Shown here: piece by piece, positions 21,449 through 38,279 of the stretch
Layout: each line of letters opens with the position of its first letter
Numbering within the stretch: the stretch's first letter is position 1
NCBI GenBank assembly: GCA_019745975.1
Contig: JAIESQ010000082.1
Span: 1 to 40,111 of the forward strand
DNA: 40,111 nt
From: Pirellulales bacterium
Lineage (GTDB): Bacteria > Planctomycetota > Planctomycetia > Pirellulales > JAEUIK01
Direction of reading: 5' to 3'
The notes under the pieces: generated by a model
The model's database searches: none
Told to the model about the DNA's origin: nothing
What the model saw: the letters and a program-made list of their open reading frames with translations, nothing else
Made by a program: the position numbers and the translations under genes

Positions 21449-21877
21449 GGCGATCCCCAATTCTGCAAGCGGGAGTGTTTCCAATCATGATCTGGTCAAA
21501 GGAGCGCCGCGGAGTTGTGGGGTTTTAGCGCAGGCAAACCCACGACGCTGGCAGATTCCGCGTCCCCTAAATGTAGATATGTCGATCTACACATCCACAA
21601 TTTAGTGCGCAGGATGGACGGGTCAAACGACCGAACCGAGGGCGAGCATCTTCTTGGCCATCGCGTCCAGATTAGTCGCTGCAAGTGACGGTTTTAGCGA
21701 TTCCGCTGCGTCGTCGATTGGCGATACTTGCGCCACGGCCCAGGACAAGAAGCGGCCGGATCGATGCTATGGGACTTGGTTGCGGAGCATGCCCGAAAGT
21801 AGAGTCTTTGAGACCCTCGCGCGCCGCGAGAGCATTCGCTCGTCGGCATTCGGCAACGGGAGTCAATTAGCGCCAAC
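21449..21877. other. Intergenic region upstream of the Cys-rich gene
   Basis: No supported gene. It contains the palindrome at 21572-21591. The remaining open frames are short and lack start signals or family-like sequence. Confidence 0.5.
21572..21591. promoter_or_regulatory. 20-bp palindrome, candidate operator
   Basis: TGTAGAT-ATGTCG-ATCTACA has perfect 7-bp arms around a 6-bp centre. This geometry suits a dimeric winged-helix regulator. The half-site TGTAGA also occurs in the inverted repeat before the second Rrf2 gene (24050-24083). It lies upstream of the Cys-rich gene and about 290 bases downstream of the first Rrf2 gene. Confidence 0.5.
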
Positions 21878-22351
21878 CTAACGGCTCGCTAATGCCGCCT
21901 TGCGCGCTTTGGCCGTTGGCCGACAGGCAAACTGACAGGCGCGGCGGTTCGGTCGAGCAGTGTCGGGCGTGAGTTCGGCGATCGTGGTTTGGCGAAAGGA
22001 GTCTTCGACCAGCGCCGCAACGTTGTCGAGGCGACGATGCAAGGGGCACAATTCGATATGGTGCTTAAGCCCTAAGGGACAACTCTGAATCCGCGGCAGC
22101 GGGTCGACGGCATTGACGACTTCGAGCACAGTCAATTTCGCCGGGTCGCGAGTAAGTTGATGACCGCCGCCTCGCCCACGCCGCGAGCGAACGATCCCGG
22201 CGCGCGATAGCGCTTGCAACACCTTCGCCAGATAGTCGCCTGGCACCTGGGTAGCCTGCGAGATTTGCTGGGTCGTCGGCGATGGATCTCCCGACTGAGC
22301 CGCGAGGTGGGCCACGGCGCGCAAGGCGTATTCGGTAGTCTGTGAGAGCAC
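21878..22351 (-). CDS. Rrf2-family transcriptional regulator 1 (NsrR/IscR-like)
   Basis: This 157-aa winged-helix regulator of the Rrf2 family has the typical start (MLSQTTEYALRAVAHLA), the recognition region (ISQATQVPGDYLAKVLQAL) and the wing (RSRRGRGGGHQL). The sensor segment has C91 and C102 followed by PLH (SCPLGLKHHIELCPLHRRLD). NsrR and IscR have a third Cys between these two, which is missing here. There is an unusual basic tail with two more Cys (RRACQFAC). The GTG start is tentative. It is divergent from ric with 133 bases between start codons, which suggests that it controls ric in response to NO or iron-sulfur status (inference). Confidence 0.9.
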   Translation of the reverse strand: MLSQTTEYALRAVAHLAAQSGDPSPTTQQISQATQVPGDYLAKVLQALSRAGIVRSRRGRGGGHQLTRDPAKLTVLEVVNAVDPLPRIQSCPLGLKHHIELCPLHRRLDNVAALVEDSFRQTTIAELTPDTARPNRRACQFACRPTAKARKAALASR

Positions 22352-22413: not shown

Positions 22414-22484
22414 CGAAACGTCAACTGACTCGTTGGTGATTTTGCCGCGGAAGAGACCCGTTTCCGGCCGAAAGGGTGACCGCC

Positions 22485-23225
22485 ATGCAGACGAAAGAAT
22501 CCGAATTGGCCGTTGGCGACGTTTGGCAGCAAAGTGCCAATCGCCGCGAGGTGCTCGAGAGTTTCGGCATCGGCGCCGAATGTGCTGACTTACCCCTACG
22601 ATCTGCCTGTGCGGCGCGAGGGGCCTGCTTTGAGGAAGTGCGGCGCGCCTTGCTGGAATGCGATCAAACCGCCGCGTCGTGCCAGGCGGATTGGGCCGGC
22701 GCATCCCTGACAGACTTGGCCGAGCATATCATGGCCTGGCATCACGGTTACTTTCGCGAGCAGCTTCCACGGCTGGGAGCACTCCTCCACAAAGTGGTCG
22801 TGCGGCATGCCCGCCGACATCCGCATCTATTCGACTTGCAGCAGATTTATTGCCAGTTTTCGGATCAATTGTTGAAACACCTGATGCGGGAGGAGCTGGC
22901 CGTCTTTCCAGCGATTCGCGCACTGGATGAGGCGGCGCGTCTCCAGCCTTCGATGTGCGAATGTCTCGTGGACGGCATTCGCCACGCGATCCAGGTCATG
23001 CGCGATGAGCATCTGGAGCTGACGAGGCTCCTGGCGAAGATGCGCAAGTTGACGTTTGGCTTCTGGCCTCCTGGCGATGCCACATGCGAATACCGCGAGC
23101 TGTTGGATAGTTTGGAAGGCCTGGAAAGCGACTTGAGACGGGGAATCCACAAGGAAGACGACTTGCTGTTTGCTTGCGCCACCGCGGCCGAGGATTCGCT
23201 CTTGGCGACCCGAAATCCGCGGTAA
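22485..23225 (+). CDS. ric: Iron-sulfur cluster repair di-iron protein Ric (YtfE/ScdA-like)
   Basis: This 246-aa protein matches the RIC family, which helps repair iron-sulfur clusters after nitric oxide or oxidative damage. The N-terminal ScdA domain (VGDVWQQSANRREVLESFGI) is followed by a hemerythrin-like di-iron bundle with the expected His and Glu residues (LAEHIMAWHHGYFRE, LLKHLMREELAVFPAI, MRDEHLELTRLL, HKEDDLLF). The usual DYCC-type Cys pair after the N-domain is not obvious; only scattered Cys remain (EC, SAC, GAC). The ATG at 22485 has AAGGG eight bases upstream; an in-frame GTG nine bases earlier is possible. It is divergent from Rrf2 regulator 1 and lies in the same island as qNor. 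Confidence 0.87.
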   Translation: MQTKESELAVGDVWQQSANRREVLESFGIGAECADLPLRSACAARGACFEEVRRALLECDQTAASCQADWAGASLTDLAEHIMAWHHGYFREQLPRLGALLHKVVVRHARRHPHLFDLQQIYCQFSDQLLKHLMREELAVFPAIRALDEAARLQPSMCECLVDGIRHAIQVMRDEHLELTRLLAKMRKLTFGFWPPGDATCEYRELLDSLEGLESDLRRGIHKEDDLLFACATAAEDSLLATRNPR

Positions 23226-23601: not shown

Positions 23602-24024
23602 TCACGTGACTTCGCACAACGGCACGATCGAGCTGGTCGAACGGAGCAAGTGAGCGATCGACACGCGCGAGAGCGCCAATTCGGTCGCGGCGTAAACACG
23701 GTCGAGCTCCGCGTGCAGCGGACAGAGCCGAGTGTGCGACGACAGCCCGAGCGGACAACGCCGAATGCGCTCCAACGGCACCACGGCATTCACCACGTCG
23801 AGGACCGTGATCTTCGCGGGCGGACGCGCCAAAGCGTACCCGCCACCGGGGCCCGACTGCGAGCGCACCATGTTGGCGCGTACCAAGTCTTGCAGCACCT
23901 TGTGCAGATAGCGCCTGGGCACTTTGGTGCGCTCGGCAAGGTGGTCGGCCGACTCCGTCCGCGCGGGCTCTCGGGCCAGCCAGACGACGGCACGCAGCGC
24001 GTATTCGGCTGTTTTGGGCAACAT
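23602..24024 (-). CDS. Rrf2-family transcriptional regulator 2
   Basis: This 140-aa Rrf2 winged-helix protein is a paralogue of the regulator at 21878-22351. It has MLPKTAEYALRAVVWLA at the start, KVPRRYLHKVLQDL in the recognition region and PGGGYALARPPAKITVLDVV in the wing. C90 and C101 with PLH (RCPLGLSSHTRLCPLHAELD) match those of the first regulator, again without a middle Cys. The ATG at 24024 fits family starts. It is divergent from the heme protein and qNor genes across a region with overlapping promoter-like sequences, so it probably regulates them and itself (inference). Confidence 0.9.
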   Translation of the reverse strand: MLPKTAEYALRAVVWLAREPARTESADHLAERTKVPRRYLHKVLQDLVRANMVRSQSGPGGGYALARPPAKITVLDVVNAVVPLERIRRCPLGLSSHTRLCPLHAELDRVYAATELALSRVSIAHLLRSTSSIVPLCEVT

Positions 24025-24047
24025 GTCGGTTTCTCTTGGCGCCGCTA

Positions 24048-24075
24048 ATTCTACACCTTGACATATAGAAATCAA
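24048..24075 (-). promoter_or_regulatory. Putative promoter of Rrf2 regulator 2
   Basis: Read on the minus strand: TTGATT (24075-24070), a 16-base spacer and TAGAAT (24053-24048), ending 24 bases before the start codon. The layout matches the ric promoter (TTGATA-N16-TAGAAT). On the plus strand TTGACA (24059-24064) with TAGATT (24080-24085) could be a weaker promoter for the heme protein gene. Confidence 0.5.
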
Positions 24076-25567: not shown

Positions 25568-27790
25568 ATGAAGCGTTTGTGGTTGTTCTTTACCCTGGTG
25601 ATGGTCGTGTCGTTCGCCGTGCTGGGCTGGATCGGCACGAGAATCTATCAAGAGATGCCTCCGCGACCGACTGAAGTGGTCTCGACCGAAGGCGCCGTCG
25701 TGATCGCCCCCGGCGACATCGAAGCCGGGCAGAATGTCTGGCAGTCGCTCGGCGGCATGGAAGTCGGCTCGATCTGGGGGCATGGCAGCTATGTCGCGCC
25801 CGATTGGACGGCCGACTATCTGCACCGCGAAGCGATGTTCATTCTCGATCGCTGGGCGACCGATGAGTTCCAGCACACCTTCTCCGAACTCAACGCCGAA
25901 CAAAAGGCTCAGTTGCAGGGGCGCCTTGCCGCGTCGCTACGACGCAACACGTTTGACCCCAAGTCGGGAAAGCTCACGATCGAGCCCGTGCGCGCGGCGG
26001 CCTTTGAAGCCAATCGACATCACTATGCCGAAGTCTTCTCGCACGGCACGCCAGAATACGCCATCCCCGCTGGCGCCGTGACCGATCCCCAGCGCTTGCA
26101 CCAGTTGGCATCATTCTTCTTCTGGACGGCCTGGTCGGCCACGACCAATCGGCCCGACGACGATATCTCCTACACGCACAACTGGCCGCACGAACCGCTC
26201 GTCGGCAATCGCCCCTCGGGCGAAGCTGTCGTTTGGACGGGCGTGAGCATCATCATGCTCTTAGCGGGGATCTCCGGCATGGTGTGGTGGTATGCCGCCC
26301 GGCGCGGCGAAGAACCTGCCCCTGCTCCGCCGCAATCCGACCCGCTCGGCTCCTGGCAATCGACCCCGTCGCAGCAAGCTACGATCAAGTACTTTTGGAT
26401 CGTGGCGGCGCTAGTCCTGGTGCAGATGCTGCTGGGCGTGGTCACCGCGCATTACGGCGTCGAGGGGGATGGCTTCTACGGCATTCCGCTTTCGAAGTGG
26501 TTGCCCTACAGCGTCGCTCGCACCTGGCACGTGCAAATCGGCCTGTTTTGGATCGCCACGGCCTGGCTGGGGGCCGGCCTGTTCATTGGCCCACTGGTCA
26601 GCAACGTTGAGCCGAAGGGGCAGGCGCTCGGCGTCAATCTATTGTTTTTGGCGCTGTTGGTCGTCGTGGTCGGTTCGCTGTCCGGCGAGCTCTTGAGTGT
26701 CCACAATCAGATGTCCGACACGGTCTCGTTCTACCTGGGACATCAGGGCTACGAATACGTCGATCTCGGCCGTGCTTGGCAGATTGCCCTGTTGGTCGGC
26801 TTGTTGCTGTGGCTCGTGCTGATGGTTCGCGTCATCTGGCCGGCGACGAAGAAGCAGGGCAACGAGCGGCAGCTCGTCACGTTGCTGCTGGTGGCCACGG
26901 CTGCCATCGCGTTGTTCTACGGCGCCGGCCTGAGTTGGGGTCAACACACCCATTTGTCGATGGTCGAGTACTGGCGGTGGTGGGTCGTCCACTTGTGGGT
27001 CGAAGGCTTTTTCGAGGTCTTCGCCACCACGGTGATCGCGTTTTTCTTCATGCGGCTGGGGCTGGTACGGCCCGGCATCGCGGCTGCTTCGGCACTGCTG
27101 TCGGCGACGATCTTTTTGTCGGGCGGCATCATCGGCACCTGTCACCACCTTTACTTCTCCGGAACCCCCACGGTGGCACTGGCTTGGGGGTCGGTGTTCA
27201 GCGCTCTGGAAGTGGTGCCACTGACCTTGGTCGGCTTCGACGCCATCGAAGATTTGCGCCGTGCAGGGGTCACCCCCTGGGTGCGGCGCTACAAGTGGCC
27301 GATCTACTTCTTCGTGGCGGTGGCTTTCTGGAACATGGTTGGCGCCGGCCTATTCGGGTTCATGATCAATCCCCCGATCGCCCTCTACTACATGCAAGGA
27401 CTTAACACGACTCCCGTGCACGGTCACGCGGCGCTCTTCGGCGTCTACGGCATGCTCGGCATCGGGCTGATGCTCGTTTGCCTGCGAGCGCTGATTCCCG
27501 AACGAGAATGGAAAGACGGGCTGCTGCGCTTCTCGTTCTGGGCCATGAACGTCGGGCTGTTTGCCATGTGCGTGCTGAGCTTGTTGCCGGTGGGGCTCAT
27601 GCAGACGTGGGCCTCGGTCGAAAAGGGTTACTGGTATGCCCGCAGCGCCGACTTGATGCAATTGCCCGTCATGCAGACACTGCGCTGGCTGCGGATACCA
27701 GGCGACACAATCTTCTTTCTGGGGGCGGTCGCACTGGTGGTGTTTGTCGCGGGCCTGAAGACTGGACACTCCTATCGGAGGTCCGACTGA
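25568..27790 (+). CDS. norB: Quinol-dependent nitric oxide reductase (qNor), single subunit
   Basis: This 740-aa membrane enzyme reduces NO to N2O with electrons from quinol. It has the long N-terminal extension of qNor (IAPGDIEAGQNVWQSLGGMEVGSIWGHGSY) fused to the 12-TM heme-copper-like core. Non-heme iron ligands match the family in identity and spacing: H475 and E479 (HLWVEGFFE) and H526/H527 (CHHLYFSGTP), the same 51-residue step as in cytochrome-type NorB. H618 and H620 (HGHAALFG) are the expected heme ligands. There is no heme c motif, which fits the quinol type. It lies downstream of the mono-heme protein on the same strand and next to Rrf2 regulators and ric, a typical NO-response setting. 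Confidence 0.96.
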   Translation: MKRLWLFFTLVMVVSFAVLGWIGTRIYQEMPPRPTEVVSTEGAVVIAPGDIEAGQNVWQSLGGMEVGSIWGHGSYVAPDWTADYLHREAMFILDRWATDEFQHTFSELNAEQKAQLQGRLAASLRRNTFDPKSGKLTIEPVRAAAFEANRHHYAEVFSHGTPEYAIPAGAVTDPQRLHQLASFFFWTAWSATTNRPDDDISYTHNWPHEPLVGNRPSGEAVVWTGVSIIMLLAGISGMVWWYAARRGEEPAPAPPQSDPLGSWQSTPSQQATIKYFWIVAALVLVQMLLGVVTAHYGVEGDGFYGIPLSKWLPYSVARTWHVQIGLFWIATAWLGAGLFIGPLVSNVEPKGQALGVNLLFLALLVVVVGSLSGELLSVHNQMSDTVSFYLGHQGYEYVDLGRAWQIALLVGLLLWLVLMVRVIWPATKKQGNERQLVTLLLVATAAIALFYGAGLSWGQHTHLSMVEYWRWWVVHLWVEGFFEVFATTVIAFFFMRLGLVRPGIAAASALLSATIFLSGGIIGTCHHLYFSGTPTVALAWGSVFSALEVVPLTLVGFDAIEDLRRAGVTPWVRRYKWPIYFFVAVAFWNMVGAGLFGFMINPPIALYYMQGLNTTPVHGHAALFGVYGMLGIGLMLVCLRALIPEREWKDGLLRFSFWAMNVGLFAMCVLSLLPVGLMQTWASVEKGYWYARSADLMQLPVMQTLRWLRIPGDTIFFLGAVALVVFVAGLKTGHSYRRSD

Positions 27791-27852: not shown

Positions 27853-29613
27853 TTACCAACGCAGTTGGTGCTGCAGATAGAACAGTTCCGGCGAGACGTC
27901 GGGTCCGGTTCGCCTGATAAAGGAGCCGGCAAACAGTTTCGAGTACCCAATCAAGATATCTTGGTGGGCCGTGAGATGGAAGTTGACGATCAGGTCAATT
28001 TCGTCTCCGACATCCGTACCAGCAGCCCCGGTAGGGTCGTAGCGCAGCGGCACACCGCCCGCGGTGAAGAGCGGCGAGCGCGCTTGTGCGAGATGAAAGT
28101 TGTGATACTGGGCGAGCAGGTAGATCCATTTCGTCGGGAAGGCGACAAGCTGCATGCTGAAATCTCGGATGTTCTGCCGCGCCACGAGATCGAGGTAGCC
28201 GAGGTAATAGTGGGCAAAGGGAAACAACTGATTGAAGGTGCCGAACTTACCTCCCTGGCCAGGATTCGAGTCACCTGAAGCAAAGTCGTAGTAGATCCAG
28301 AACTGCGGGGTCAGCGGCAACTCCTTGAAGTTATAGCCGGCGCCCGTCGTCACCGCCGCGGCCTGCAATTGCTGGTTGGAATAGCGTCCGACCTGGAGCA
28401 TGCCTTCGAAGTCGTACAGCCAGGTAGTGTCCAGGTCGCCGATCAGGCGCGTACCAAGCGTGGTGACATTCGTTCCACCAACGACGCCCCCTTCGCCGAC
28501 GGCAACTGGATTCGAGTTCTCGAGATTCAGAGCATACAGGTCCCAGAAGCGTCCCGCTTGCGCGCGATACGTGCTCCAGATGCCTGTGAAGTTTCTTCGT
28601 GGGTCGGAAGAGTCGAAATGGAACGGATCGGGAACAACCGGCTGCAGCCAGAAGCCCGTGAGATCCCATTTCTCCCCCTGGCGAAACAGCCGCGCACCCT
28701 GAAAGGTCCGCAGCACATTGCCCCATTCGAGGTTCGAGACTAGCCGTTGCGAACCAAGGGCGAGTTCCTGCCGCCCGCCACGAACGTAAAGCGGGTGATC
28801 GTCCCATTCCAGCAGCTTCAGATCGACAAACAGATCGGTGAGGTCCGATGGGTTCCGATCGATTGCTAACGGCGGAAGTTCGGCGCCCAAGTGCTGCGCG
28901 TCGAGATACTGAATGAAGACGCCGAAGTCGTCCTGGTAGTACAGCGAACCGTAGACAATCGACCGCAGTTGCTCGTAGCGATTGATGGTGGGCGTCAGCC
29001 GGCTGTCGATTTCGTTCATGTAGCGGTCGCGGAACTCGCCGCCGGTCGAGAAGAGCCAGCCCGCGCCGAGCCTCTGACGCTTGAGTACGTCGGACCACAT
29101 GTGGTACGTGTTCTTCGGGTCGTCGAGGTAACGAAAATCCGCGTCGTAGAACGGGAAGGGTTTGAGGCTGATTCGTCCCCAAGGAAACGGCGGTGGCGCT
29201 TTCCGGTAATTGCCCAAAAGGACGTCGGCGGCCGAGTAGTAGCCCGGTCCGGTCGGAAAAACTGGATACAAACCGAGCCGCGAAAAGATCAGGTGGGGCG
29301 GCGTACCGGCGAAGGGGTTGTTCTTGTTCGCAGGTTTGGGTTTAGGCGCGGCCGCGGGCGCGGCGACCTCTACATTCGTAGTCGCGTCAATCGAGCGATA
29401 CGCCGCCGGTAGCGCCGGGCTGGCCGCAGACGCTCTTGCAGTCGCCACATTGTCAATACCCGCAATGGCTGACGACTCGACCCCAGCGACTTGGCGCAAC
29501 CCCGTGAACGGCAAGCAAACTACCAGCGCGACGCGCAGTGGCAATGCGAGCCACCGAGAGTCAGTCGCACGCCAGCAAGTTCGCAGCTTGGTCCAACGGA
29601 TTGTGCCCGCCAT
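27853..29613 (-). CDS. Alginate-export-type outer-membrane beta-barrel protein
   Basis: This 586-aa protein has a signal region, a Pro/Ala/Lys linker (AAPAAAPKPKPANKNNPF) and then a long stretch of alternating beta strands of the alginate-export (AlgE-like) barrel type. Examples are PFYDADFRYLDDPKNTYH, FSTGGEFRDRYMNEIDSR, YVRGGRQELALGSQRLVS and FSMQLVAFPTKWIYLLAQYH. It ends in QHQLRW, the terminal aromatic typical of outer-membrane barrels. The ATG at 29613 is preferred, since upstream codons look non-coding. It is convergent with qNor and divergent from mobB. The setting suggests a channel for nitrate, nitrite or another small anion, which is inference; alginate export is unlikely because no alginate genes are nearby. 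Confidence 0.85.
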   Translation of the reverse strand: MAGTIRWTKLRTCWRATDSRWLALPLRVALVVCLPFTGLRQVAGVESSAIAGIDNVATARASAASPALPAAYRSIDATTNVEVAAPAAAPKPKPANKNNPFAGTPPHLIFSRLGLYPVFPTGPGYYSAADVLLGNYRKAPPPFPWGRISLKPFPFYDADFRYLDDPKNTYHMWSDVLKRQRLGAGWLFSTGGEFRDRYMNEIDSRLTPTINRYEQLRSIVYGSLYYQDDFGVFIQYLDAQHLGAELPPLAIDRNPSDLTDLFVDLKLLEWDDHPLYVRGGRQELALGSQRLVSNLEWGNVLRTFQGARLFRQGEKWDLTGFWLQPVVPDPFHFDSSDPRRNFTGIWSTYRAQAGRFWDLYALNLENSNPVAVGEGGVVGGTNVTTLGTRLIGDLDTTWLYDFEGMLQVGRYSNQQLQAAAVTTGAGYNFKELPLTPQFWIYYDFASGDSNPGQGGKFGTFNQLFPFAHYYLGYLDLVARQNIRDFSMQLVAFPTKWIYLLAQYHNFHLAQARSPLFTAGGVPLRYDPTGAAGTDVGDEIDLIVNFHLTAHQDILIGYSKLFAGSFIRRTGPDVSPELFYLQHQLRW

Positions 29614-29961
29614 GCGCGATCTCGATTCGATCGATAGTTGTCCCACACCTGGGCGATTAGCTGCCCTAAGTACTATCGGCGGGTCTGGGTTGGTCCGATC
29701 GTTTTCCGATGAACAATCGGTAAGCTCACACGCACACGCATGCCACGTGACGCCTGTTGCCAAGGCGGCGAGCCAGAAGCCGCATAGTTGCGCGTTGGGA
29801 CCGATACATCTTGCGCGATGAGTAGCTCGTGGCGCCGGCAGGAGTCGCTACAATCGGCACCTTCCGCCATGTCGCGGTGCGCCCACCGAATTACCACGAG
29901 AATGGACTAGGGCCGTTCCGGTTCGAAGGCGACCCCCCCAACTACTACAGGAAGCAAACGC
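29614..29961. other. Divergent intergenic region between the porin and mobB
   Basis: No supported gene or hairpin is seen. It should contain the promoters of both flanking genes. Only the AGGA of the mobB ribosome binding site (near 29949-29952) is recognisable. Confidence 0.45.
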
Positions 29962-30453
29962 TTGAAACGCGTTCACGTCGTCGGTCGCAAGAATAGCGGG
30001 AAAACGACGCTCATCGTCGAGCTAACCGAGTACCTGACCCAGCGCGGACTGCGCGTCGGTACCATCAAGCACACGCACCACCGGCATGAACTGGACACGC
30101 CGGGAAAGGACTCTCACCGGCACCGTGTGGCCGGCGCCAATACGGTGGCCGTAATGAGTCCCGAGCTCGTTGCCGTTTATCGGCGGAGCGACGTCGTCGG
30201 TGACGAACGCTACTTGGCACTCGAAGCAGCGTTCGCCGATTGCGATCTCGTTTTGGTCGAAGGCGACCTCGCGGCCAAAGCACCGAAGGTCGAGGTGTGG
30301 CACCATGCGGTGCAGGAAGCGCCCTATGCGAACACGGTTGATGGGATCGCAGCAGTGATTACCGACGACCAATTCGAGGGATCATCGCCGGTGTGGCCAC
30401 GCAACCCGATTGCCCAATTGGCGGAGCTGATTCTCTTACTGAATCACGCCTAA
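29962..30453 (+). CDS. mobB: Molybdopterin-guanine dinucleotide biosynthesis protein MobB
   Basis: This 163-aa cytoplasmic GTP-binding protein is thought to assist MobA in attaching GMP to molybdopterin, giving the bis-MGD cofactor of DMSO-reductase-family enzymes. The Walker A loop is HVVGRKNSGKTTLIVEL, followed by KHTHHRHELDTPGKDSHRHRVAGA, the family core, and LVLVEGDLAAKAPKVEV. Length is normal. The TTG start with AGGA about nine bases upstream is the only reasonable choice. It converges on the NXR-like molybdoenzyme operon, with 37 bases between the stop codons, so its product plausibly serves that enzyme. Confidence 0.95.
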   Translation: MKRVHVVGRKNSGKTTLIVELTEYLTQRGLRVGTIKHTHHRHELDTPGKDSHRHRVAGANTVAVMSPELVAVYRRSDVVGDERYLALEAAFADCDLVLVEGDLAAKAPKVEVWHHAVQEAPYANTVDGIAAVITDDQFEGSSPVWPRNPIAQLAELILLLNHA

Positions 30454-30490: not shown

Positions 30491-31294
30491 CTAGCATTTG
30501 AGTTCGACGACGTCGACCAGGCAGCCGGAACATTCGTCGGGCGCTTCGACGACGCGCGCCTCGAGCGGCATCATTGGCGCCGGCACTCCGAGTCGCGCGC
30601 GGTCTACGGGGAGCAGTGCTGCCAGCGTTTGCCCCAAGGCGGCATACAGCCCTTGCTCAGCCTTGCGTCGCAGTCCCACCGCAAACGACGGCGCCCACCA
30701 ACTCAGGTGGTCGCGCATGAATGCACGACAGGCCTCCTGGCAGACGGTTGCTCCGTCGTCTGCACTGTCGGCGAGTCGTTTTTTCAAGAGCACGAGCGAC
30801 ATAAACTCCAGTTCGAGGCAGAGATGGTCCGGCCGCTCGCGGGGCTCGGAGCCCGGCTCGAGCCCGAAGGCACGGTAAAACCCCGCGACGTCGGCCATCT
30901 GTTGCGAGCGGTAGAAGATCTCTTCGTTCTTGCAGAACTCGGTTTCATAGGGGGGGCATTCGCGGCAGGTGGCGAGTCCAAACACGCGGACATATTCGGC
31001 ACCGAGCTCGTGTGGCGGCCGCGCGAGTTCCATCACGACTTGCGCGAGATTGAGTTGTTCGCTAGGGAGCTCCCCAAAGCCCAGCGCGATGGGCGGCGCC
31101 GCGAACTCGTCCCGTAGCACTTCCGCGGCAACAGTCGCGAGCCGTTGATTCTCGGGGTTCAGTACCAGGCTCCAGGAATCGCCACGGGGATCGCTGAGCG
31201 CCGCCGCCAGAAAGCGATACAGCGTTTCAGTCGCCAAATCCAAGTCGGCTTCCAAGGTGGCGGCGGGGGAATTCTGCGCAGCGGTGAGCGACAT
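30491..31294 (-). CDS. TorD/NarJ-family chaperone of the NXR-like molybdoenzyme
   Basis: This 267-aa all-helical chaperone of the TorD/DmsD/NarJ superfamily inserts cofactor into, and controls export of, a molybdoenzyme. Features are LATETLYRFLAAALSDPRGDSW at the N-terminus, PPHELGAEYVRVFGLATC and the family motif CPPYETEF, here within CRECPPYETEFCKNEE. The C-terminus ends with another Cys cluster (DECSGCLVDVVELKC), which is unusual and might bind metal. AGAGG lies seven bases before the ATG at 31294; a long in-frame extension upstream overlaps the beta-subunit gene and is not real. It is the last gene of the operon, 29 bases after the Fe-S subunit. Confidence 0.88.
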   Translation of the reverse strand: MSLTAAQNSPAATLEADLDLATETLYRFLAAALSDPRGDSWSLVLNPENQRLATVAAEVLRDEFAAPPIALGFGELPSEQLNLAQVVMELARPPHELGAEYVRVFGLATCRECPPYETEFCKNEEIFYRSQQMADVAGFYRAFGLEPGSEPRERPDHLCLELEFMSLVLLKKRLADSADDGATVCQEACRAFMRDHLSWWAPSFAVGLRRKAEQGLYAALGQTLAALLPVDRARLGVPAPMMPLEARVVEAPDECSGCLVDVVELKC

Positions 31295-31323
31295 CGTCAG
31301 CCTCTTGTGGTCGAAGGACGGTC

Positions 31324-32616
<1,293 letters not shown>

Positions 32617-32632
32617 GGCTCATCCTTTCATG

Positions 32633-33076
32633 TCACTCGGCGCGACCATTCGCGTCCGCAAGGTCGATCGGGCTGTCGCCGCTCGTTTCGCGCGAGCACG
32701 GCCCGGCAGTAGTCGTAGGCATTTGGATTTGCACGAGTTGCAGGTGGTCTTCGTCGTTGTCGTCGTCTTCCACGATTGTCTCGCGAAACTGCAGCACACC
32801 CCACTGGGCGACCAGCGCCTCGACCTGTCGTCGGATCTCATCGTCGCCGTAGTAGGCGCGCAACTCGCACAAGAGCGGATAGCCGGGGTGATAAAAGAGG
32901 CCCAACAATTGTTCGGCACCCCATCCCATCCAGGCGAATTCCTGCAGGATGCACTCAAGCATCACCGCGGGATCACCAGCCACGGGAGTGGCGACGAGTT
33001 CCAGGGGGTCTTCGACCGCTGCATCGCGCGTCAGCGGATGCACCTTAGCGACAAACTGCGGATCAACCCGGTCCAT
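32633..33076 (-). CDS. Unknown protein encoded between the alpha and beta subunits
   Basis: This 147-aa protein lies 9 bases after the alpha-subunit stop and 16 bases before the beta-subunit start, so it is translated within the operon. The sequence has a helical middle (LECILQEFAWMGWGAEQLLGL, then ELRAYYGDDEIRRQVEALVAQWG) and an acidic stretch (IVEDDDNDEDHLQL) before a Thr/Ser-rich tail. There is no signal peptide, heme motif or metal-binding cluster. I do not recognise the family. The position suggests a dedicated assembly factor or small structural subunit, which is inference. Confidence 0.72.
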   Translation of the reverse strand: MDRVDPQFVAKVHPLTRDAAVEDPLELVATPVAGDPAVMLECILQEFAWMGWGAEQLLGLFYHPGYPLLCELRAYYGDDEIRRQVEALVAQWGVLQFRETIVEDDDNDEDHLQLVQIQMPTTTAGPCSRETSGDSPIDLADANGRAE

Positions 33077-33085
33077 GCGTTCACC

Positions 33086-36000
33086 TCACGATTGAATGCG
33101 GATGTAGCCGCCGCTGAGATACAGTTCCTTCTCGGGCGATTCGCTCTGCGGACTGAAGGCGTTCGTGGCTTCGTCCCACGTGCCCTGTCCGCCGATCCCC
33201 CCCGGTTCGGCCTTGACGATGCGGACCAGCGTTTCCTTGGGGACCGTATTGACCGCGTGATTGTCGGCCTCGCCGCCGAACATGAAGCCCATCTTCAGCT
33301 TCGCCTTGTGGAACAACGTGTCGGTCTGGTGCATGGGCATGAGCCAGTTGCGCGTGCACGACTGCTGCGAGCCGTAACGCAGAGTCGCCTGATAACCCGT
33401 GTCGGCCGAGCGTGCCCGGCCATCGGGACGCGTTTCGTGAGCCAACACCGTTTTTTCGGTGGCAATGTAAGGTGCGTGTTTGGTCATGACGACGCCGCGC
33501 GGGTAGCTCGTGTTGAACATCACCCGCACCAGGAACCGCGCCACTTTTGCCCGCGCGGGATCCTTTTGCCAATCGATGAACGGGCGGTCGGCTGGATTGG
33601 AATCGACATAGACGTAATCGCCGTCGTTGAGACCCAACTCGCGAGCATCGTCGGGATTGACGTGGAGCTGATGATCGCCGAAGAACGGCAACCGCTTGTC
33701 GCGGCGATGCGGGTCGCCGAAGCTCGAGTCCCAAATGTTGTGCCAGTCGACGTTGGACCACGACGAGTGCACCCGGTGTCGCGTCTTCGGGGTTAGCAGA
33801 TAGAACCGGTATCCCTGTTCCCACAGGGGATTGTGGGTCTGGCGCACCTCGCTCCAGGGGAGCTTGATATTTCGAATGGTCCGTTCGTCCCAGTGCATTG
33901 CCTCGCGACCGAGGCCAAAGTCTTCGGGGCGAATCAACGGATTGGCACTGACGATAACGTTCGGCAGGTACGGAGTGGCTTCGGGGCCCTCGCGGTGCAC
34001 GACGAAGTTTTCACCGTGCAGGATGGCTTCGGGAATATCGCAGTAGGCATTCAGGCGCCCCGTGTCGGTCCAGAACGGGAGATTGTCGTTCACGTTCTCG
34101 TAGAAGGGGATGCGGGGATACGTGCGGAACAGCATCAGGGCGACACCGGAATCGCCATATTTGCCTGCGAGAATGTCGTCGACCTTGTAGCCGCGCGTGG
34201 TCGTCGAACCGTCGAGCAGTCGCTGGATGTACGTGTTGACACCTTTGGCGGGATCGTCGAGGACAAATCGCCAGTAGTCGGCGAATCGTTTGTCGCCTGT
34301 TTCGCGCGTCAGGGCATCGGCGGTCTGGGCGAGAATATGGACGTCATCGCGCGTGTCGTAGAGCGGCGGAATTCCCCCCTTCCAGATTTGCAAGTAGGGA
34401 TTCGAGCAGGAGGCTGTAATCTCGTAGGTCTGAAATTCCATCCAGGTGTTGGCCGGCAGGATCAAATCGGCATACTCGCAGGAGCTGGTCATTTCCACGT
34501 CTTGCGCGACGATGCAATCGATCTTCGGATTGACCCGAAAGAGCATGTCGTAGGCGTGTTTGGCGTTATTGAAGAGATTGACGTTGGTGAACCAGAGGAA
34601 CTTCGTTGGAGTGGGCATGTGCGTTTGCCCCGTGAAGTTCCGCCGACCGTATTTGGGTGTGTCGACGACCAGGGGCCGCTCGCCGTGATTCCAGTAGGCG
34701 GGCTCTTCGTCCTTGGTCGTCTTGCTGACCTTGATCTGCTTGCCGTCGACCTGCGGGTCAAGGTTTGTATTGAAGGGGTCCTCGGCGATCCACCCCAAGA
34801 AGCCCGGCCCAGACTCAGGAGAACTCTGAAACAGCGCCGACTTGTAATTGCCAGCCCAGGTGAAGCAGCCGGCCCCCGGCTTGCCGAGTTGCCCTGTGAG
34901 CATGATCGGCAGGTACTGCGCACGATTGGCTTGCGTGGCATGGAACCAGTGATTGATCCCCTCTCCCACGTGGATCGCCACCGCGTGGCCGGCGCGACTG
35001 GTGTCCCAGATATCCTTGGCCAGGCGTTCGATGAGCGCCTTATCGGCGCCCGTGATCTCGGCAACCGTATCCAGATCGTAGTCCTTGAGGTGTGTTTGAT
35101 AAGCCTCCCACAACGTGATCACTTCGACTTCTTGTCCGTCGACGAGCTTCACTCGACCCGAATAAGAGAGCGCGGGCACGATGCCGGCTGCCTGCATGCG
35201 GGGACCGAGTTGGTCGCGCGTGATGGCGCGCACGGCATGTTGCTTCTCGTCGTAGATGCAGAAATCGCCGATCTTCGCGTACTGCTCGTCGGTCAGGTGT
35301 TGCGTGGTGTACGATGGACCATCCTTCGCCAAACCAGGCTGATAACCGGCGAAAACGTCGACAGCACGCAGACGCTGCAAGTTGTCGGTGCGGATCAACA
35401 AGGGGAAGTCCGTATACGCGCGGACGAACTCACTGTCGTACCACTGGTTGTCGATCATCACGCGCGTGACACCCAAGAACAGCGCGGTGTCGGTGCAACC
35501 GGGCCGAACTTGGATCCAGTAGTTGGCCTTCGTTGCGGGAGGCGAATACTCGGGAGTAATCACCACGATCCGGCCGCCCCGCTCCATCATTTCGATGAAC
35601 CAGTGGGAGTCGGGCATCTTGTTCTCGACGAGATTCTTGCCGCACTGGATATGCAGCTTGGCGTTCCGCATGTCGTTGAAGTCGCAATCGGCCGTTTGCA
35701 GCCCGTGCACGAAGGGATGTCCCGGCGCCTGGTCGCCGTGCCAGGTATAGTTCGACCAGAGGCGTCCGCCGAGGCTATCCTTCGGTTCCACCTTGCGCAC
35801 CAAGTGGTCGACTACCGCCAACATGTTCGACCAGCGGTACAGACCGTACTTGCCCATCACGCCTAACAGTCCCATGCCGCCGCGCAGCTTAAAGGTCCGC
35901 GTTCCAGCACCGTGGCAAGCCTCGAGCATTTCGGGCACGTAACCATCTTTTTCCAGTCGCCGAGTTCCTTCCTCGCCCGAGTAGGTGGCGGCGATCGCCA

Positions 36001-36547
36001 TTACCGCCTTGGCGTGATAGCGGTAGATCTCATCCCAACTGAGCTTCACGAACGAGTCCGTGCCGCGCGAATTGAACTTGTACTTGTCGCGCAGGCTAGG
36101 GTCGTCCGACAACGAAGGGAAGCCGTCGTCGGCCCATTGCTTCCAACCTTGGCGCACGAGGGGGGTTCGCAGGCGATAGGGCCCGTAGACGCGTCTTTGC
36201 TGCGTGAAGCCCTTCGCGCAGCCGCGCGGATTCCAATGCACGGTGTCGGTATTGCCGTATAAATCCTGGCACGTGCCCCCTTCGTAGGCTTGCTCGGAGC
36301 GGAGCACTACGCCGTTGCGTAGAAAGGCCCGCATTCGACAGTTGTGCGTGTCGTTCGGCGCGCACACCCAGGTGAAGGAGCTATCCACGCGATACTGATC
36401 GCGATAAACGCGCTCCCAGTCGCGATCGGGATACATCCCCAGCGGGTTGTCGACACTTACCGGATCGAACGCCCATAGCCTGGGCGCCAGCACACTGGCG
36501 CCGCCGACCACAGCCACTGCCGATCGCAAGAATTCGCGGCGATGCAT
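33086..36547 (-). CDS. nxrA: Molybdenum catalytic (alpha) subunit, NXR-like type-II DMSO reductase family
   Basis: This 1153-aa molybdopterin oxidoreductase has an N-terminal Tat signal (HRREFLRSAVAVVGGASVLA), so it acts outside the cytoplasmic membrane. The FS0 cluster ligands appear as C62-x3-D66-x3-C70 and C110, where NarG has His-x3-Cys-x3-Cys. The likely molybdenum ligand is D272 in YTWHGDQAPGHPF, the position of the NarG aspartate. Segments such as GKNLVENKMPDSHWFIEMME and VITPEYSPPATKANYWI strongly resemble NxrA of Nitrospira and anammox bacteria as I remember them. The reaction is therefore probably nitrite-nitrate interconversion, direction unknown; chlorate or selenate are less likely. 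It follows the cytochrome subunit by 55 bases. No membrane NarI partner is seen. Confidence 0.9.
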   Translation of the reverse strand: MHRREFLRSAVAVVGGASVLAPRLWAFDPVSVDNPLGMYPDRDWERVYRDQYRVDSSFTWVCAPNDTHNCRMRAFLRNGVVLRSEQAYEGGTCQDLYGNTDTVHWNPRGCAKGFTQQRRVYGPYRLRTPLVRQGWKQWADDGFPSLSDDPSLRDKYKFNSRGTDSFVKLSWDEIYRYHAKAVMAIAATYSGEEGTRRLEKDGYVPEMLEACHGAGTRTFKLRGGMGLLGVMGKYGLYRWSNMLAVVDHLVRKVEPKDSLGGRLWSNYTWHGDQAPGHPFVHGLQTADCDFNDMRNAKLHIQCGKNLVENKMPDSHWFIEMMERGGRIVVITPEYSPPATKANYWIQVRPGCTDTALFLGVTRVMIDNQWYDSEFVRAYTDFPLLIRTDNLQRLRAVDVFAGYQPGLAKDGPSYTTQHLTDEQYAKIGDFCIYDEKQHAVRAITRDQLGPRMQAAGIVPALSYSGRVKLVDGQEVEVITLWEAYQTHLKDYDLDTVAEITGADKALIERLAKDIWDTSRAGHAVAIHVGEGINHWFHATQANRAQYLPIMLTGQLGKPGAGCFTWAGNYKSALFQSSPESGPGFLGWIAEDPFNTNLDPQVDGKQIKVSKTTKDEEPAYWNHGERPLVVDTPKYGRRNFTGQTHMPTPTKFLWFTNVNLFNNAKHAYDMLFRVNPKIDCIVAQDVEMTSSCEYADLILPANTWMEFQTYEITASCSNPYLQIWKGGIPPLYDTRDDVHILAQTADALTRETGDKRFADYWRFVLDDPAKGVNTYIQRLLDGSTTTRGYKVDDILAGKYGDSGVALMLFRTYPRIPFYENVNDNLPFWTDTGRLNAYCDIPEAILHGENFVVHREGPEATPYLPNVIVSANPLIRPEDFGLGREAMHWDERTIRNIKLPWSEVRQTHNPLWEQGYRFYLLTPKTRHRVHSSWSNVDWHNIWDSSFGDPHRRDKRLPFFGDHQLHVNPDDARELGLNDGDYVYVDSNPADRPFIDWQKDPARAKVARFLVRVMFNTSYPRGVVMTKHAPYIATEKTVLAHETRPDGRARSADTGYQATLRYGSQQSCTRNWLMPMHQTDTLFHKAKLKMGFMFGGEADNHAVNTVPKETLVRIVKAEPGGIGGQGTWDEATNAFSPQSESPEKELYLSGGYIRIQS

Positions 36548-36602
36548 GGTGTGTAGGCTCCTGTTCTTCCGCGTGATTTGAAGTGGCTTTGCCAGCGAGT
36601 GT

Positions 36603-38279
36603 TCAATCGATCTTCAGGTCATTCCAAAGCGAGATTCGCTTCTGCGGTCCGCGGTCGTGGGCCGCACCGTCCCACAGCGCGGCTGCGAGCGAATAACGCT
36701 CCGCAGGTTGCAACGATTGCCCATCGGATTCAGCTACCTGCAATGGCCGCGAGAGCATCACGTTCCAACGTCCGTCTTTCCAGACGGCGGCAGATTGCAC
36801 TACTTGCGAGGCCTTGGGTCGGAATGTCGTGCTTCCCAACCCCCCCGCGACGAGGTCCGCCCCGCTCTGATCGCGCGTCGCCAGAGGATTGCCGGCGGCG
36901 CGGGCAGTGATGAAGTCGGGTAGTTGTTGTCCCTTAAGCAACTGGCGGTATATCGGCTCATCAAAGGGATAGTCGTCGGACGGAAAATCCTCCGCACTTC
37001 GGTTGGCGGTGCCGGCCCGCCATTGCCACAGCTCGATCGGCGTCTCCTTCGAGCCCATCCCCAAGAACGGCTCCGCGTTTCCTTGGTACAACTCGACGGC
37101 GGCCATGTCCTCGAACTCATCAGCACGCACGGCGCCGTCATCATGGGTGGCATCATCCCAGGTCAGACGTATCGCGAGTGATTGGCCATCGTGAACGGCC
37201 TGCACATCGACCCAAGGATGCGGATCGTCGCGCCACCAGAGGGGCATGGTCAACAGCCGAGTTGCCGACACCGCTTGCCAAGCCGTATCGTCGGGCGTTT
37301 GTGGCAGCCGCGGCACGCGTCCCGCCGAGATTTGCTGGCGCTTGGCAACCGTCGCATCGCGCGTAGCCTGGTCCGACAGCGATAGCACGAAATGAGTCAG
37401 ATCCGCGATCGCCGCCGGCTCGACGTCTCGTAACGAGGGCATCGGTGTCCCAGGCATCCCGGCCAGAATCCGCCGATACACAACCACAGGATCGGGATCC
37501 CCCTTGTACAAGCCACGCGTGAGATCGCGAGGTCGAGTCGCAAAGCCTTCGGTGTCGATCATCTGTTGCTGGCCGTCGCCGCGACCTTCGTTGCCGTGAC
37601 AGGCGGCGCAACCCTTGGTCTTGTACAGTTCACGACCACGCTCGATCGCTTCCGCGCTGGATGGCGGCAACGGGGGCACCTCGATCATGGGGCCCGGGGT
37701 AATCAGTGGAGCGATCGCTTCCTCGAGCTCCTCAGGCGTACGCTCGGTCTCCTCCTCGGCGGCGATGGCCAGCTCAATGTCTTTCGCGCCGTCGCGCCGC
37801 AGTTGCATGACGTACTCGGCTAGCTCACGACGGGCGCCGGCTGAAAGATGCTCCCAGGGCGGCATCGCCGAGCCGGGCATCCCGCGCGCGATCGCCCCTT
37901 CGAGATCCTCGATCGTCGGAACATTGTTGGCAGTGCTGACGAGTCGGAAGTTCCCCGCCCTGAAGTCGCGCGGCTTGGGATATAGAAAGACGGCAGCGAT
38001 CCCCTTGCCATCCCCTTTTTCGCCGTGGCATGCCGCACAGTGTCGGCCGTAAAGACTAGCGACCGTCTGCGGTGCGGCGTCCGGTCGCTCGGGGACCGAA
38101 GCCTTCGCGGCGCCACTCGATTGGTCCTTAGGGGATGGGCTTGCGCCACCGGCCGGTGCTGTTGGCTTCGATTGTCCACAGCCTGCGGCGAAGGATGCCA
38201 GCAGCAGCGTCAGCAATAACGACCAGCCGTCGGAGTTTGACGGACCAGGCAGAAGCCGGACCTTCTTCCGAATTCGCAT
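36603..38279 (-). CDS. Dual cytochrome c / heme b (EB_dh-type) lipoprotein subunit of the NXR-like enzyme
   Basis: This 558-aa protein has a lipoprotein signal with lipobox FAAGC (C34), then two cytochrome c domains with heme motifs C81-AACH and C224-AACH. Downstream Met-containing segments (MPGSAMPPW, MPGTPMPSL) are likely sixth ligands. The C-terminal part from about 330 resembles the ethylbenzene-dehydrogenase-type heme b gamma subunit (VDVQAVHDGQSLAIRLTWDD, EDMAAVELYQG, FRPKASQVVQSAAVWKDGRW). It is the likely electron exit of the complex, anchored to a membrane by lipid. AGGGGAG lies before the ATG at 38279; an upstream extension is not convincing. It is the first gene of the operon. Fusion of two c-type domains to the heme b module is its main peculiarity. 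Confidence 0.88.
   Translation of the reverse strand: MRIRKKVRLLPGPSNSDGWSLLLTLLLASFAAGCGQSKPTAPAGGASPSPKDQSSGAAKASVPERPDAAPQTVASLYGRHCAACHGEKGDGKGIAAVFLYPKPRDFRAGNFRLVSTANNVPTIEDLEGAIARGMPGSAMPPWEHLSAGARRELAEYVMQLRRDGAKDIELAIAAEEETERTPEELEEAIAPLITPGPMIEVPPLPPSSAEAIERGRELYKTKGCAACHGNEGRGDGQQQMIDTEGFATRPRDLTRGLYKGDPDPVVVYRRILAGMPGTPMPSLRDVEPAAIADLTHFVLSLSDQATRDATVAKRQQISAGRVPRLPQTPDDTAWQAVSATRLLTMPLWWRDDPHPWVDVQAVHDGQSLAIRLTWDDATHDDGAVRADEFEDMAAVELYQGNAEPFLGMGSKETPIELWQWRAGTANRSAEDFPSDDYPFDEPIYRQLLKGQQLPDFITARAAGNPLATRDQSGADLVAGGLGSTTFRPKASQVVQSAAVWKDGRWNVMLSRPLQVAESDGQSLQPAERYSLAAALWDGAAHDRGPQKRISLWNDLKID

What the first reader, a model, noticed from the sequence alone, without database searches (positions are those of the whole stretch)
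30491..38279. NXR-like periplasmic molybdoenzyme operon in a non-anammox-looking planctomycete
Five minus-strand genes run cytochrome c2/heme b lipoprotein, Tat-exported alpha subunit, 147-aa unknown, four-cluster beta subunit, TorD chaperone. The alpha and beta sequences resemble nitrite oxidoreductase of Nitrospira and anammox bacteria (type-II DMSO reductase family), not cytoplasmic NarGHI: there is a Tat signal and no NarI. The surrounding genes (exported sugar- and lipid-type enzymes, PEP-CTERM proteins) suggest a heterotroph, so the enzyme could be a nitrate reductase working in reverse, a facultative nitrite oxidase, or act on another oxyanion.
Basis: partly seen in the sequence, partly recalled or inferred. 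Interest (0 to 1): 0.9.

Follow-up and report, generated by a model that had tools for sequence, protein, structure and literature searches.

The report
Planctomycete nitrite oxidoreductase with unknown partner
A non-anammox planctomycete carries a complete exported enzyme complex of the nitrite-oxidising (NXR) family together with a small unknown protein that tracks this branch of the family, so nitrite/nitrate conversion may be more widespread among supposed heterotrophs than the known specialists suggest.

Summary
The five-gene operon is real and complete: diheme-c/heme-b lipoprotein (NxrC type), Tat-type NxrA, a 147-aa unknown, NxrB, TorD chaperone. NxrA matches the solved Kuenenia NXR-A over its whole length (1571 bits, 58.5% identity), against 162 for perchlorate reductase, 149 for ethylbenzene dehydrogenase and 122 for NarG. 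Mo, [4Fe-4S] and heme b ligands are conserved. In a tree it falls inside the group holding anammox and Nitrospira NxrA, in a large branch of mostly planctomycete and Chloroflexota records. Planctomycete NXR was already reported in 2023 (PMC10732223), so it is not a first.

New here: the 147-aa protein has no Pfam, NCBIfam or convincing PDB relative. It occurs in 28 of 29 genomes with this NXR branch and in 0 of 51 others, anammox included. At the thresholds used the genome lacks NarG, NapA, NirK, NrfA and RuBisCO. It has heme-copper oxidases, and a quinol NO reductase lies 2.7 kb from the operon's end. Most likely this is a reversible, cytochrome-c-linked periplasmic nitrite/nitrate enzyme in a heterotroph. 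The in vivo direction is open: oxidation slightly favoured, not shown.

The parts
36603..38279 (-). NxrC-type electron-transfer subunit: putative lipoprotein with two c-type heme motifs fused to an EB_dh/NxrC heme b domain; 558 aa
   Evidence: Pfam Cytochrom_C, Cytochrome_CBB3 and EB_dh; matches 7b04_C from residue 358 and the diheme protein 6h5l_B; Met408 and Lys547 align with heme ligands Met155 and Lys305 of Kuenenia NXR-C; CxxCH at two places
33086..36547 (-). NxrA, catalytic molybdopterin subunit with twin-arginine motif; 1153 aa
   Evidence: 1571 bits over 3-1151 to Kuenenia NXR-A; Cys62, Asn65, Asp66, Cys70 and Asp272 align with Kuenenia Cys67, Asn70, Asp71, Cys75 and Asp275; tree
32633..33076 (-). 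p147, uncharacterised small helical protein that tracks this NXR branch
   Evidence: profile found in 28 of 29 genomes with this NXR branch and 0 of 51 others; four helices between 36 and 92, pLDDT 92-98 over residues 41-100; no Pfam or NCBIfam family, no convincing PDB match
31324..32616 (-). NxrB, iron-sulfur subunit with 15 conserved cluster cysteines; 430 aa
   Evidence: 564 bits to Kuenenia NXR-B; 62.9% identity, 15 shared cysteines
30491..31294 (-). TorD/NarJ-type assembly chaperone; 267 aa
   Evidence: Pfam Nitrate_red_del over its cut-off; TIGR03482 below its cut-off
29962..30453 (+). MobB, molybdopterin-guanine dinucleotide adaptor, next to the operon
   Evidence: Pfam MobB; TIGR00176 over cut-off; a MobB match also in 5 of 56 related loci
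27853..29763 (-). Alginate_exp-type outer-membrane porin, neighbour, not shown to be part of the system
   Evidence: Pfam Alginate_exp 1e-84; no match in the 56 loci
25568..27790 (+). qNor, quinol-type nitric oxide reductase, functional neighbour
   Evidence: up to 836 bits full length to solved NorB proteins of this length; PF22085 and COX1; a heme-copper oxidase within 20 kb of NXR in 5 of 20 genomes
22476..23225 (+). RIC/YtfE-type iron-sulfur repair protein of nitrosative stress
   Evidence: TIGR03652, below its curated cut-off; Hemerythrin domain
23602..24075 (-). Rrf2-family regulator (NsrR/IscR-like)
   Evidence: TIGR00738 over cut-off
21878..22351 (-). Rrf2-family regulator (NsrR/IscR-like)
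   Evidence: Pfam Rrf2; TIGR00738 over cut-off

Best explanation
The operon encodes a periplasmic, membrane-tethered nitrite oxidoreductase (NXR) of the anammox/Nitrospira class that can run both ways. NxrA folds in the cytoplasm, takes up Mo-bis-MGD with the TorD chaperone and carries NxrB out through the Tat pathway. At the Mo (ligand Asp272, substrate residue Asn65) nitrite and nitrate are interconverted. Electrons pass along FS0 (three Cys and Asp66), the four NxrB clusters, heme b (Met408/Lys547) and the two fused c hemes, which trade them with the cytochrome c pool of the respiratory chain. The small p147 protein is an assembly factor or extra subunit of this NXR branch. In oxic conditions the complex would feed nitrite electrons to the cytochrome oxidases; with nitrate and no oxygen it would respire nitrate, and the nearby NO reductase would deal with NO. 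Shown by sequence: family, ligands, export motif, fused hemes, operon, neighbours. Inferred: activity, direction, p147 function. For the main direction in vivo I put about 0.5 on nitrite oxidation, 0.4 on nitrate reduction. The confidence below is for the NXR-type nitrite/nitrate enzyme as described; the first two rivals are narrower claims about direction and overlap with it.
For: NxrA and NxrB match Kuenenia NXR over their full length, far above Pcr, Ebd and Nar; KsNXR is biochemically bidirectional (PMC8387239, section 4). Ligands conserved. Tree placement with anammox and Nitrospira NxrA, SH-aLRT 100. Own genome: no NarG, NapA, NirK or NrfA at the thresholds used, so this is the only dissimilatory nitrate/nitrite enzyme these searches recognised; four heme-copper oxidase matches, one of them the qNor. 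For nitrite oxidation: in three sister loci (L025, L026, L049) a COX3 with an inserted cytochrome c domain lies 22-70 bp upstream of the nxrC-type ORF in the same direction; 7 of 20 NXR genomes of the order have a NarG match (6 over the cut-off), against 3 of 25 without NXR (2 over it) (one-sided p 0.07 on the 7 and 3, phylogeny not corrected). For nitrate reduction: qNor and NO-stress genes near it, no RuBisCO.
Against: No activity, expression or growth data. Sequence does not tell the direction: the FS0 Asp ligand occurs in NXR and in some Nar lineages (PMC8387239), and the Y-4x-D-11x-Q signature does not separate groups. The distant relative in Thermogutta (41% identity) was annotated as a nitrate reductase of an organism that grows on nitrate (PMC5673643 passages). 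The orphan COX3 could be NorE-like (recalled) rather than part of a terminal oxidase, and the window operon lacks it. The NCBIfam models of type II DMSO-family subunits and chaperone score below their curated cut-offs. The NirS test was inconclusive.
Confidence: 0.72

Rival explanations
1. Dedicated periplasmic nitrate reductase. Electrons from the quinol pool reach the two c hemes through a bc1 or alternative complex III, flow back through heme b and the clusters, and reduce nitrate to nitrite outside the membrane; the NO reductase next door removes NO that arises from nitrite.
For: Only nitrate enzyme recognised in the genome by the searches made; qNor at 25568-27790 and RIC, hemerythrin and Rrf2 genes nearby; a heme-copper oxidase of qNor length within 20 kb of NXR in 5 of 20 NXR genomes, about 3e-6 by a simple binomial with a distance chosen after looking; no RuBisCO. 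Several close relatives (isolate names PLA1, PLA5 and the like) are, from recall, genomes from anammox reactors, where nitrate is plentiful; the titles alone do not say so.
Against: Closest biochemically studied relative oxidises nitrite; sister loci pair the operon with a COX3-cytochrome c gene; some genomes have NarG as well.
Confidence: 0.3
2. Dedicated facultative nitrite oxidase: the organism is a mixotrophic nitrite oxidiser that gains energy from nitrite through cytochrome c oxidase while using organic carbon.
For: NXR branch membership; fused c hemes suited to donate to cytochrome c; oxidases in the genome; COX3-cyt c in three sister operons.
Against: No CO2 fixation by RuBisCO (other pathways not tested); denitrification-type neighbours; single gene copy, whereas Nitrospira moscoviensis and several anammox genomes hold two or more.
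Confidence: 0.35
3. The complex acts mainly on another oxyanion or an organic substrate (chlorate, selenate, hydrocarbon), like other type II DMSO reductase family members.
For: The diheme/heme b subunit shares its EB_dh domain with ethylbenzene dehydrogenase and relatives; Mo enzymes of this family are often promiscuous (recalled).
Against: Scores 162 and 149 bits to PcrA and EbdA against 1571 to NXR; both lie outside in the tree; active-site residues identical to Kuenenia at the ligand positions checked; TIGR03479 311 bits against a cut-off of 985.
Confidence: 0.05

Closest known systems
Kuenenia stuttgartiensis NXR-ABC (PDB 7b04; kustd1700/1703/1704)
   Same: NxrA 58.5% and NxrB 62.9% identical; Mo, FS0 and heme b ligands conserved; EB_dh-type C domain; TorD chaperone in the cluster
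   Different: Gene order C-A-p147-B-TorD instead of C-B-TorD-A; C domain fused to two c-heme motifs with a lipoprotein-like signal; p147 present, none in 8 of 8 f62 genomes searched; no anammoxosome expected (inference)
Nitrospira NXR
   Same: Periplasmic NxrA/NxrB of the same group; 50-52% NxrA identity in the Nitrospira-titled loci
   Different: No p147, TorD or heme b C homologue of the window found beside nxrAB in the Nitrospira loci fetched
alt_NxrC of Nitrospina gracilis (PMC3578206 passages)
   Same: EB_dh-type heme b domain plus 1-3 c-type heme sites in one protein
   Different: There extra copies besides simple NxrC; here the fused form is the only C gene of the operon
Planctomycete NXR of the Oslofjord tunnel MAGs (PMC10732223 passages)
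   Same: Non-anammox Planctomycetota with NxrA close to Kuenenia; nitrite oxidation proposed, direction not assigned; some also have Nar
   Different: The passages I read do not mention p147 or the fused C subunit; Thermogutta, which that tree puts in the same large clade, is only 41% identical here
Thermogutta terrifontis Nar-like enzyme (L136, taken to be THTE_1509 of PMC5673643)
   Same: NxrA-like alpha with beta and EB_dh-type genes
   Different: 41% identity, separate branch, no p147 in that genome

Membership tests
Periplasmic NXR (anammox/Nitrospira type) | NxrA groups with anammox and Nitrospira NxrA, not with Nar/Pcr/Ebd | tested here: met
   83-row tree, SH-aLRT 100 for the 72-row group; the 54-row tree, which has no Nar/Pcr/Ebd rows, keeps a 49-row group at 100; order of branches inside unresolved
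Periplasmic NXR (anammox/Nitrospira type) | Mo ligand Asp, Asn at the substrate, FS0 with three Cys and one Asp | tested here: met
   Asp272, Asn65, Cys62, Asp66 and Cys70 aligned with Kuenenia; the third FS0 cysteine was only seen by eye in the pairwise alignment
Periplasmic NXR (anammox/Nitrospira type) | NxrB with four clusters | tested here: met
   15 shared cysteines with Kuenenia NxrB
Periplasmic NXR (anammox/Nitrospira type) | Tat signal on NxrA, none on NxrB | tested here: inconclusive
   RREFL motif and N-termini read by eye; no signal predictor was run
Periplasmic NXR (anammox/Nitrospira type) | Heme b C subunit with Met/Lys ligands | tested here: met
   Met408 and Lys547 align with the Kuenenia ligands
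Periplasmic NXR (anammox/Nitrospira type) | Nitrite oxidation activity | not testable with these tools
   needs biochemistry
NarGHI nitrate reductase | NarG over the TIGR01580 cut-off, cytoplasmic, with NarI | tested here: not met
   146.6 bits against 1084; no NarG match in the genome at E<=1e-20
Type II DMSO reductase subfamily model (Ebd, Clr, Ser, Ddh, Pcr) | alpha over the TIGR03479 cut-off | tested here: not met
   310.8 bits against 984.75; PcrA and EbdA outside in the tree; SerA, ClrA and DdhA not in the tree
Anammox metabolism in the host | Hydrazine synthase in the genome | not tested
   no search made; host is outside the family of Kuenenia

The most novel reading that the evidence does not exclude
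A large, mostly uncultured set of heterotrophic Planctomycetota, Chloroflexota and other bacteria are facultative nitrite oxidisers with their own class of NXR, marked by the p147 protein (a new obligatory subunit or assembly factor) and, in planctomycetes, by a fused diheme NxrC that wires the enzyme straight to cytochrome c and, in some, to a dedicated COX3-cytochrome c.
Probability: 0.35. Interest if true: 0.75.

Novelty: new variant of a known kind. Interest (0 to 1): 0.5.

Why it matters
Nitrate is made in nature almost only by NXR (PMC8387239), and the organisms credited with it are a short list. A further widespread branch of periplasmic NXR in bacteria taken for heterotrophs would add possible nitrite sinks or nitrate reducers to nitrogen budgets. 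p147 gives a marker gene and a handle on how this branch is assembled. The branch also bears on where the anammox and Nitrospira enzymes came from: a December 2025 study (PMC12758564 passages) found only two non-anammox planctomycetes in its NXR-A tree, neither grouping with anammox.

Tried and rejected
NarGHI or Ebd/Pcr membership: rejected by scores and tree. Misbinned contig: disfavoured; mean tetranucleotide correlation of the window halves with ten other stretches of the genome 0.75 and 0.72, against 0.72 among those ten; but the same-family genome G001 gives 0.74 and 0.77, so the test does not exclude a close relative; the short nxr stretch alone 0.58. p147 as homologue of a gene in the anammox, Nitrospira, f93 or 41% clusters: no support in eight loci; hhalign probability at most 1.4% for the ORFs of 110 aa or more, none of the shorter ones above 30%. 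p147 fold: Foldseek gave no match with E below 1; the second look gave a best Z of 5.7 (60 residues, rmsd 2.9) to an unrelated effector, within the noise for small helical models. Such absences do not show a new fold. PDB profile hits of p147 were designed repeat proteins over about 20 positions, taken as spurious. FNR-like sites upstream of nxrC: 0 of 13 regions had a full site; L144 had one mismatch, L026 two.

A 14-bp box is exact upstream of L024 nxrC and of the L026 cox3-nxr operon and at two mismatches in L038, of 43 regions; it is not in the window promoter (best four mismatches). The box was taken from L024 after L026 and L038 had been seen, and in some of the 43 loci nxrC is not the first gene. 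Claim that this branch is closer to anammox than Nitrospira is: first tree suggested it (99), the second was unresolved, the AU test does not reject anammox plus Nitrospira as one clade, p 0.425. NirS absence: not established; the first search rang nowhere, the repeat gave weak partial hits, in this genome (33 bits) and in Kuenenia too.

Rows dropped: one to five Nitrospira loci stood for the 45 fetched; the 83-row tree left out 16 of 99 rows prepared; the 54-row tree was picked by hand from the 99. Genomes dropped: G065 (searched; no NarG, NapA, NirK or NrfA match), G193, G031, G066 and G030 have only partial NXR genes and are outside the 20. G141, inside the 20, has a short NarG fragment, not counted.

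Loci without p147: 69 of 149 NxrA loci, namely 45 Nitrospira-type, 12 anammox, 3 f93, 2 of the 41% type and 7 of this branch: L037, L036, L007, L115, L039, L050 and L045. L115 and L050 end inside NxrA, L039 ends 0.5 kb after it, L036 and L037 start at or near NxrA; L007 and L045 (weak, E 0.018) remain true exceptions as far as seen. The profile was built from the same loci, so presence there is partly by construction; the absence in 51 other genomes is the independent part, and in many genomes only 56 of more candidates were scored.
Full report
Observation. The five minus-strand genes at 30491-38279 are all present and tightly spaced. From 5' to 3' they are a fused diheme c / heme b protein with a lipobox-like signal, a twin-arginine NxrA, a 147-aa unknown (p147), NxrB and a TorD/NarJ-type chaperone. 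The window is one whole contig, C140, of a 6.98-Mb genome in 204 contigs, 99.94% complete, with a single NxrA match. Its composition fits other contigs of the genome, and equally a genome of the same family.

Family. phmmer against PDB sequences gives 1571 bits over the full length to Kuenenia NXR-A, then 162 (perchlorate reductase), 149 (ethylbenzene dehydrogenase) and 122 (NarG). NxrB gives 564 bits to Kuenenia NXR-B, next best 196. The C-terminal half of the cytochrome matches NXR-C, and its diheme half best matches 6h5l_B, which I take from recall to be Kustc0457 of Kuenenia, redox partner of HAOr. A fetched locus, L129, is Kuenenia by 100% identity over 297 residues to the PDB fragment. 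Against it NxrA is 58.5% and NxrB 62.9% identical, all 15 NxrB cysteines are kept, and the heme b ligands align as Met408 and Lys547. Residues named in the structure paper (PMC8387239, section 4 read) are conserved: Cys62, Asn65, Asp66, Cys70, Asp272. Among the 71 rows of this branch in that alignment, the window included, the FS0 Asp is present in 65, with Cys in 6.

Tree. In the 83-row tree (of 99 rows prepared) the window sits in a 15-row group (SH-aLRT 100) of mostly planctomycete records; L023 is titled Vicinamibacteraceae and L026 only 'bacterium'. That group lies inside a 72-row group (100) that holds anammox and Nitrospira. NarG, PcrA and EbdA are outside; long outgroup branches carry a warning. 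A 54-row mixture-model tree without those outgroups keeps the 49-row group at 100 but leaves its base unresolved, and the AU test does not reject anammox plus Nitrospira as one clade, p 0.425. So the enzyme is in the NXR group; whether it is nearer to anammox is not settled. The branch includes records titled Planctomycetota, Chloroflexota, Actinomycetota, Desulfobacteraceae and Omnitrophica.

Distribution. In the order, 62 of 196 genomes match at E<=1e-3, but 34 of these only weakly or over short stretches; 20 full-length hits of 58% identity or more, the window's own included, were taken as loci. In the phylum sample 71 of 294 match at E<=1e-50, anammox and the 41% type included. Genome G017 has a contig of 4,810,751 bp, the length printed for Thermogutta terrifontis R1; its enzyme is only 41% identical and lies on another branch.

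p147. Iterated profile search over fetched loci gave 80 ORFs in 80 of 149 NxrA loci, 65 after removing repeated loci. Over 80 whole genomes the profile found it in 28 of 29 genomes with this NXR branch (miss: G060) and in 0 of 51 others: 25 without NXR, 14 with only the 41% type, 8 anammox, 4 f93 (Fisher p about 1e-20, not corrected for descent, and presence is partly by construction). Each of the 28 hits lies within about 0.5 kb of NxrA. In some Chloroflexota loci (L031, L034, L051, L095) it sits upstream of NxrA rather than between A and B, so the link does not depend on one position. It has no Pfam or NCBIfam family and no convincing PDB relative by sequence or fold. AlphaFold2 gives four helices between residues 36 and 92, pLDDT 92-98 over 41-100. 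Only one cysteine position reaches a majority in the consensus. Assembly factor or extra subunit is inference.

Operon architecture. Planctomycete loci of the order with enough flank read C-A-p147-B-TorD. The anammox loci L129, L131 and L132 read C-B-TorD-A with another unknown ORF of about 320 aa before A. The three f93 loci read C-A-B-TorD. The Nitrospira loci fetched hold A-B without a match to the window's heme b C domain, p147 or TorD. A fused heme b plus heme c subunit is known as alt_NxrC in Nitrospina (PMC3578206 passages), so it is not new in kind.

Host metabolism. No NarG, NapA, NirK, NrfA or RuBisCO match in the genome at the thresholds used. NirK was absent from all 49 genomes searched while the control rang in three. 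NirS is inconclusive. There are four heme-copper oxidase matches, one of them the window's qNor at 25568-27790, which matches solved NorB proteins full length at up to 836 bits. Near it lie a RIC-type repair protein and two Rrf2 regulators; hemerythrin-type and carboxymuconolactone-decarboxylase-type genes flank the other side of the operon. In 5 of the 20 NXR genomes of the order a heme-copper oxidase of qNor length lies within 20 kb of NXR (G000, G014, G128, G089, G062). Only the window's was confirmed as qNor, and G014's by 81% identity to it. A simple binomial gives about 3e-6, with the distance chosen after looking and partial-NXR genomes left out.

Direction. For oxidation: NXR kinship, fused c hemes, oxidases, and in L025, L026 and L049 a COX3 with an inserted cytochrome c domain just upstream of the nxrC-type ORF. 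7 of 20 NXR genomes have a NarG match, 3 of 25 others do; over the cut-off 6 and 2 (p 0.07). For reduction: qNor and NO-stress neighbours, no RuBisCO, and no other nitrate reductase recognised in the genome. I hold a reversible enzyme most likely and lean slightly to nitrite oxidation as the main role; this is inference.

Literature. [quoted passage not shown] PMC11009272 (passages) describes another phylum with NXR. PMC12758564 (passages) found only Novopirellula aureliae and T. terrifontis as planctomycete NXR-A relatives. PMC10467342 (passages) discusses transfer between anammox and Nitrospira. PMC6050957, PMC12485887 and PMC11995701 were seen as passages only. My searches showed no title or abstract start about a p147-like protein, but only open-licence papers are held and the listed papers were not all read.

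Verdict. Real, complete and correctly read by the first stage. It is a new member of a known enzyme family in a kind of host already reported, with one new element: a small protein that marks a whole NXR branch.

Noticed in passing
L025 6734-8074, L026 5917-7224, L049 6605-8029: COX3 with an inserted cytochrome c domain directly upstream of the nxrC-type gene, same direction, in three sister loci.
   Followed up: partly
L024 8071, L026 5899, L038 7869, L152 463; window 22381: Box GGATATTGACATCC upstream of two nxr operons (two mismatches in L038) and, with 19 shared bases, about 1 kb upstream of NarG in the genome of L024; a weaker copy between an Rrf2 gene and RIC in the window. Possible Rrf2 site.
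   Followed up: partly
window 24158-25474 (+): 438-aa exported-looking protein with one CxxCH motif upstream of qNor; no Pfam, NCBIfam or PADLOC match and no PDB match with E below 0.1; a 54% match near NXR in L021.
   Followed up: partly
L129 11187-12158, L131 5653-6678, L132 11276-12229: Unknown ORF of about 320 aa between TorD and NxrA in anammox clusters, not related to p147 by hhalign.
   Followed up: no
L133 12978-14364: After C-A-B-TorD in family f93 follow ORFs that look like Rieske and cytochrome b proteins by eye.
   Followed up: no
window 20705-21484 (-): Cys/Gly-rich protein with the planctomycete TIGR03000 domain.
   Followed up: no
L025 13905, L049 13911: Hemerythrin-like gene between nxrA and nxrB in two loci, besides p147.
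   Followed up: no
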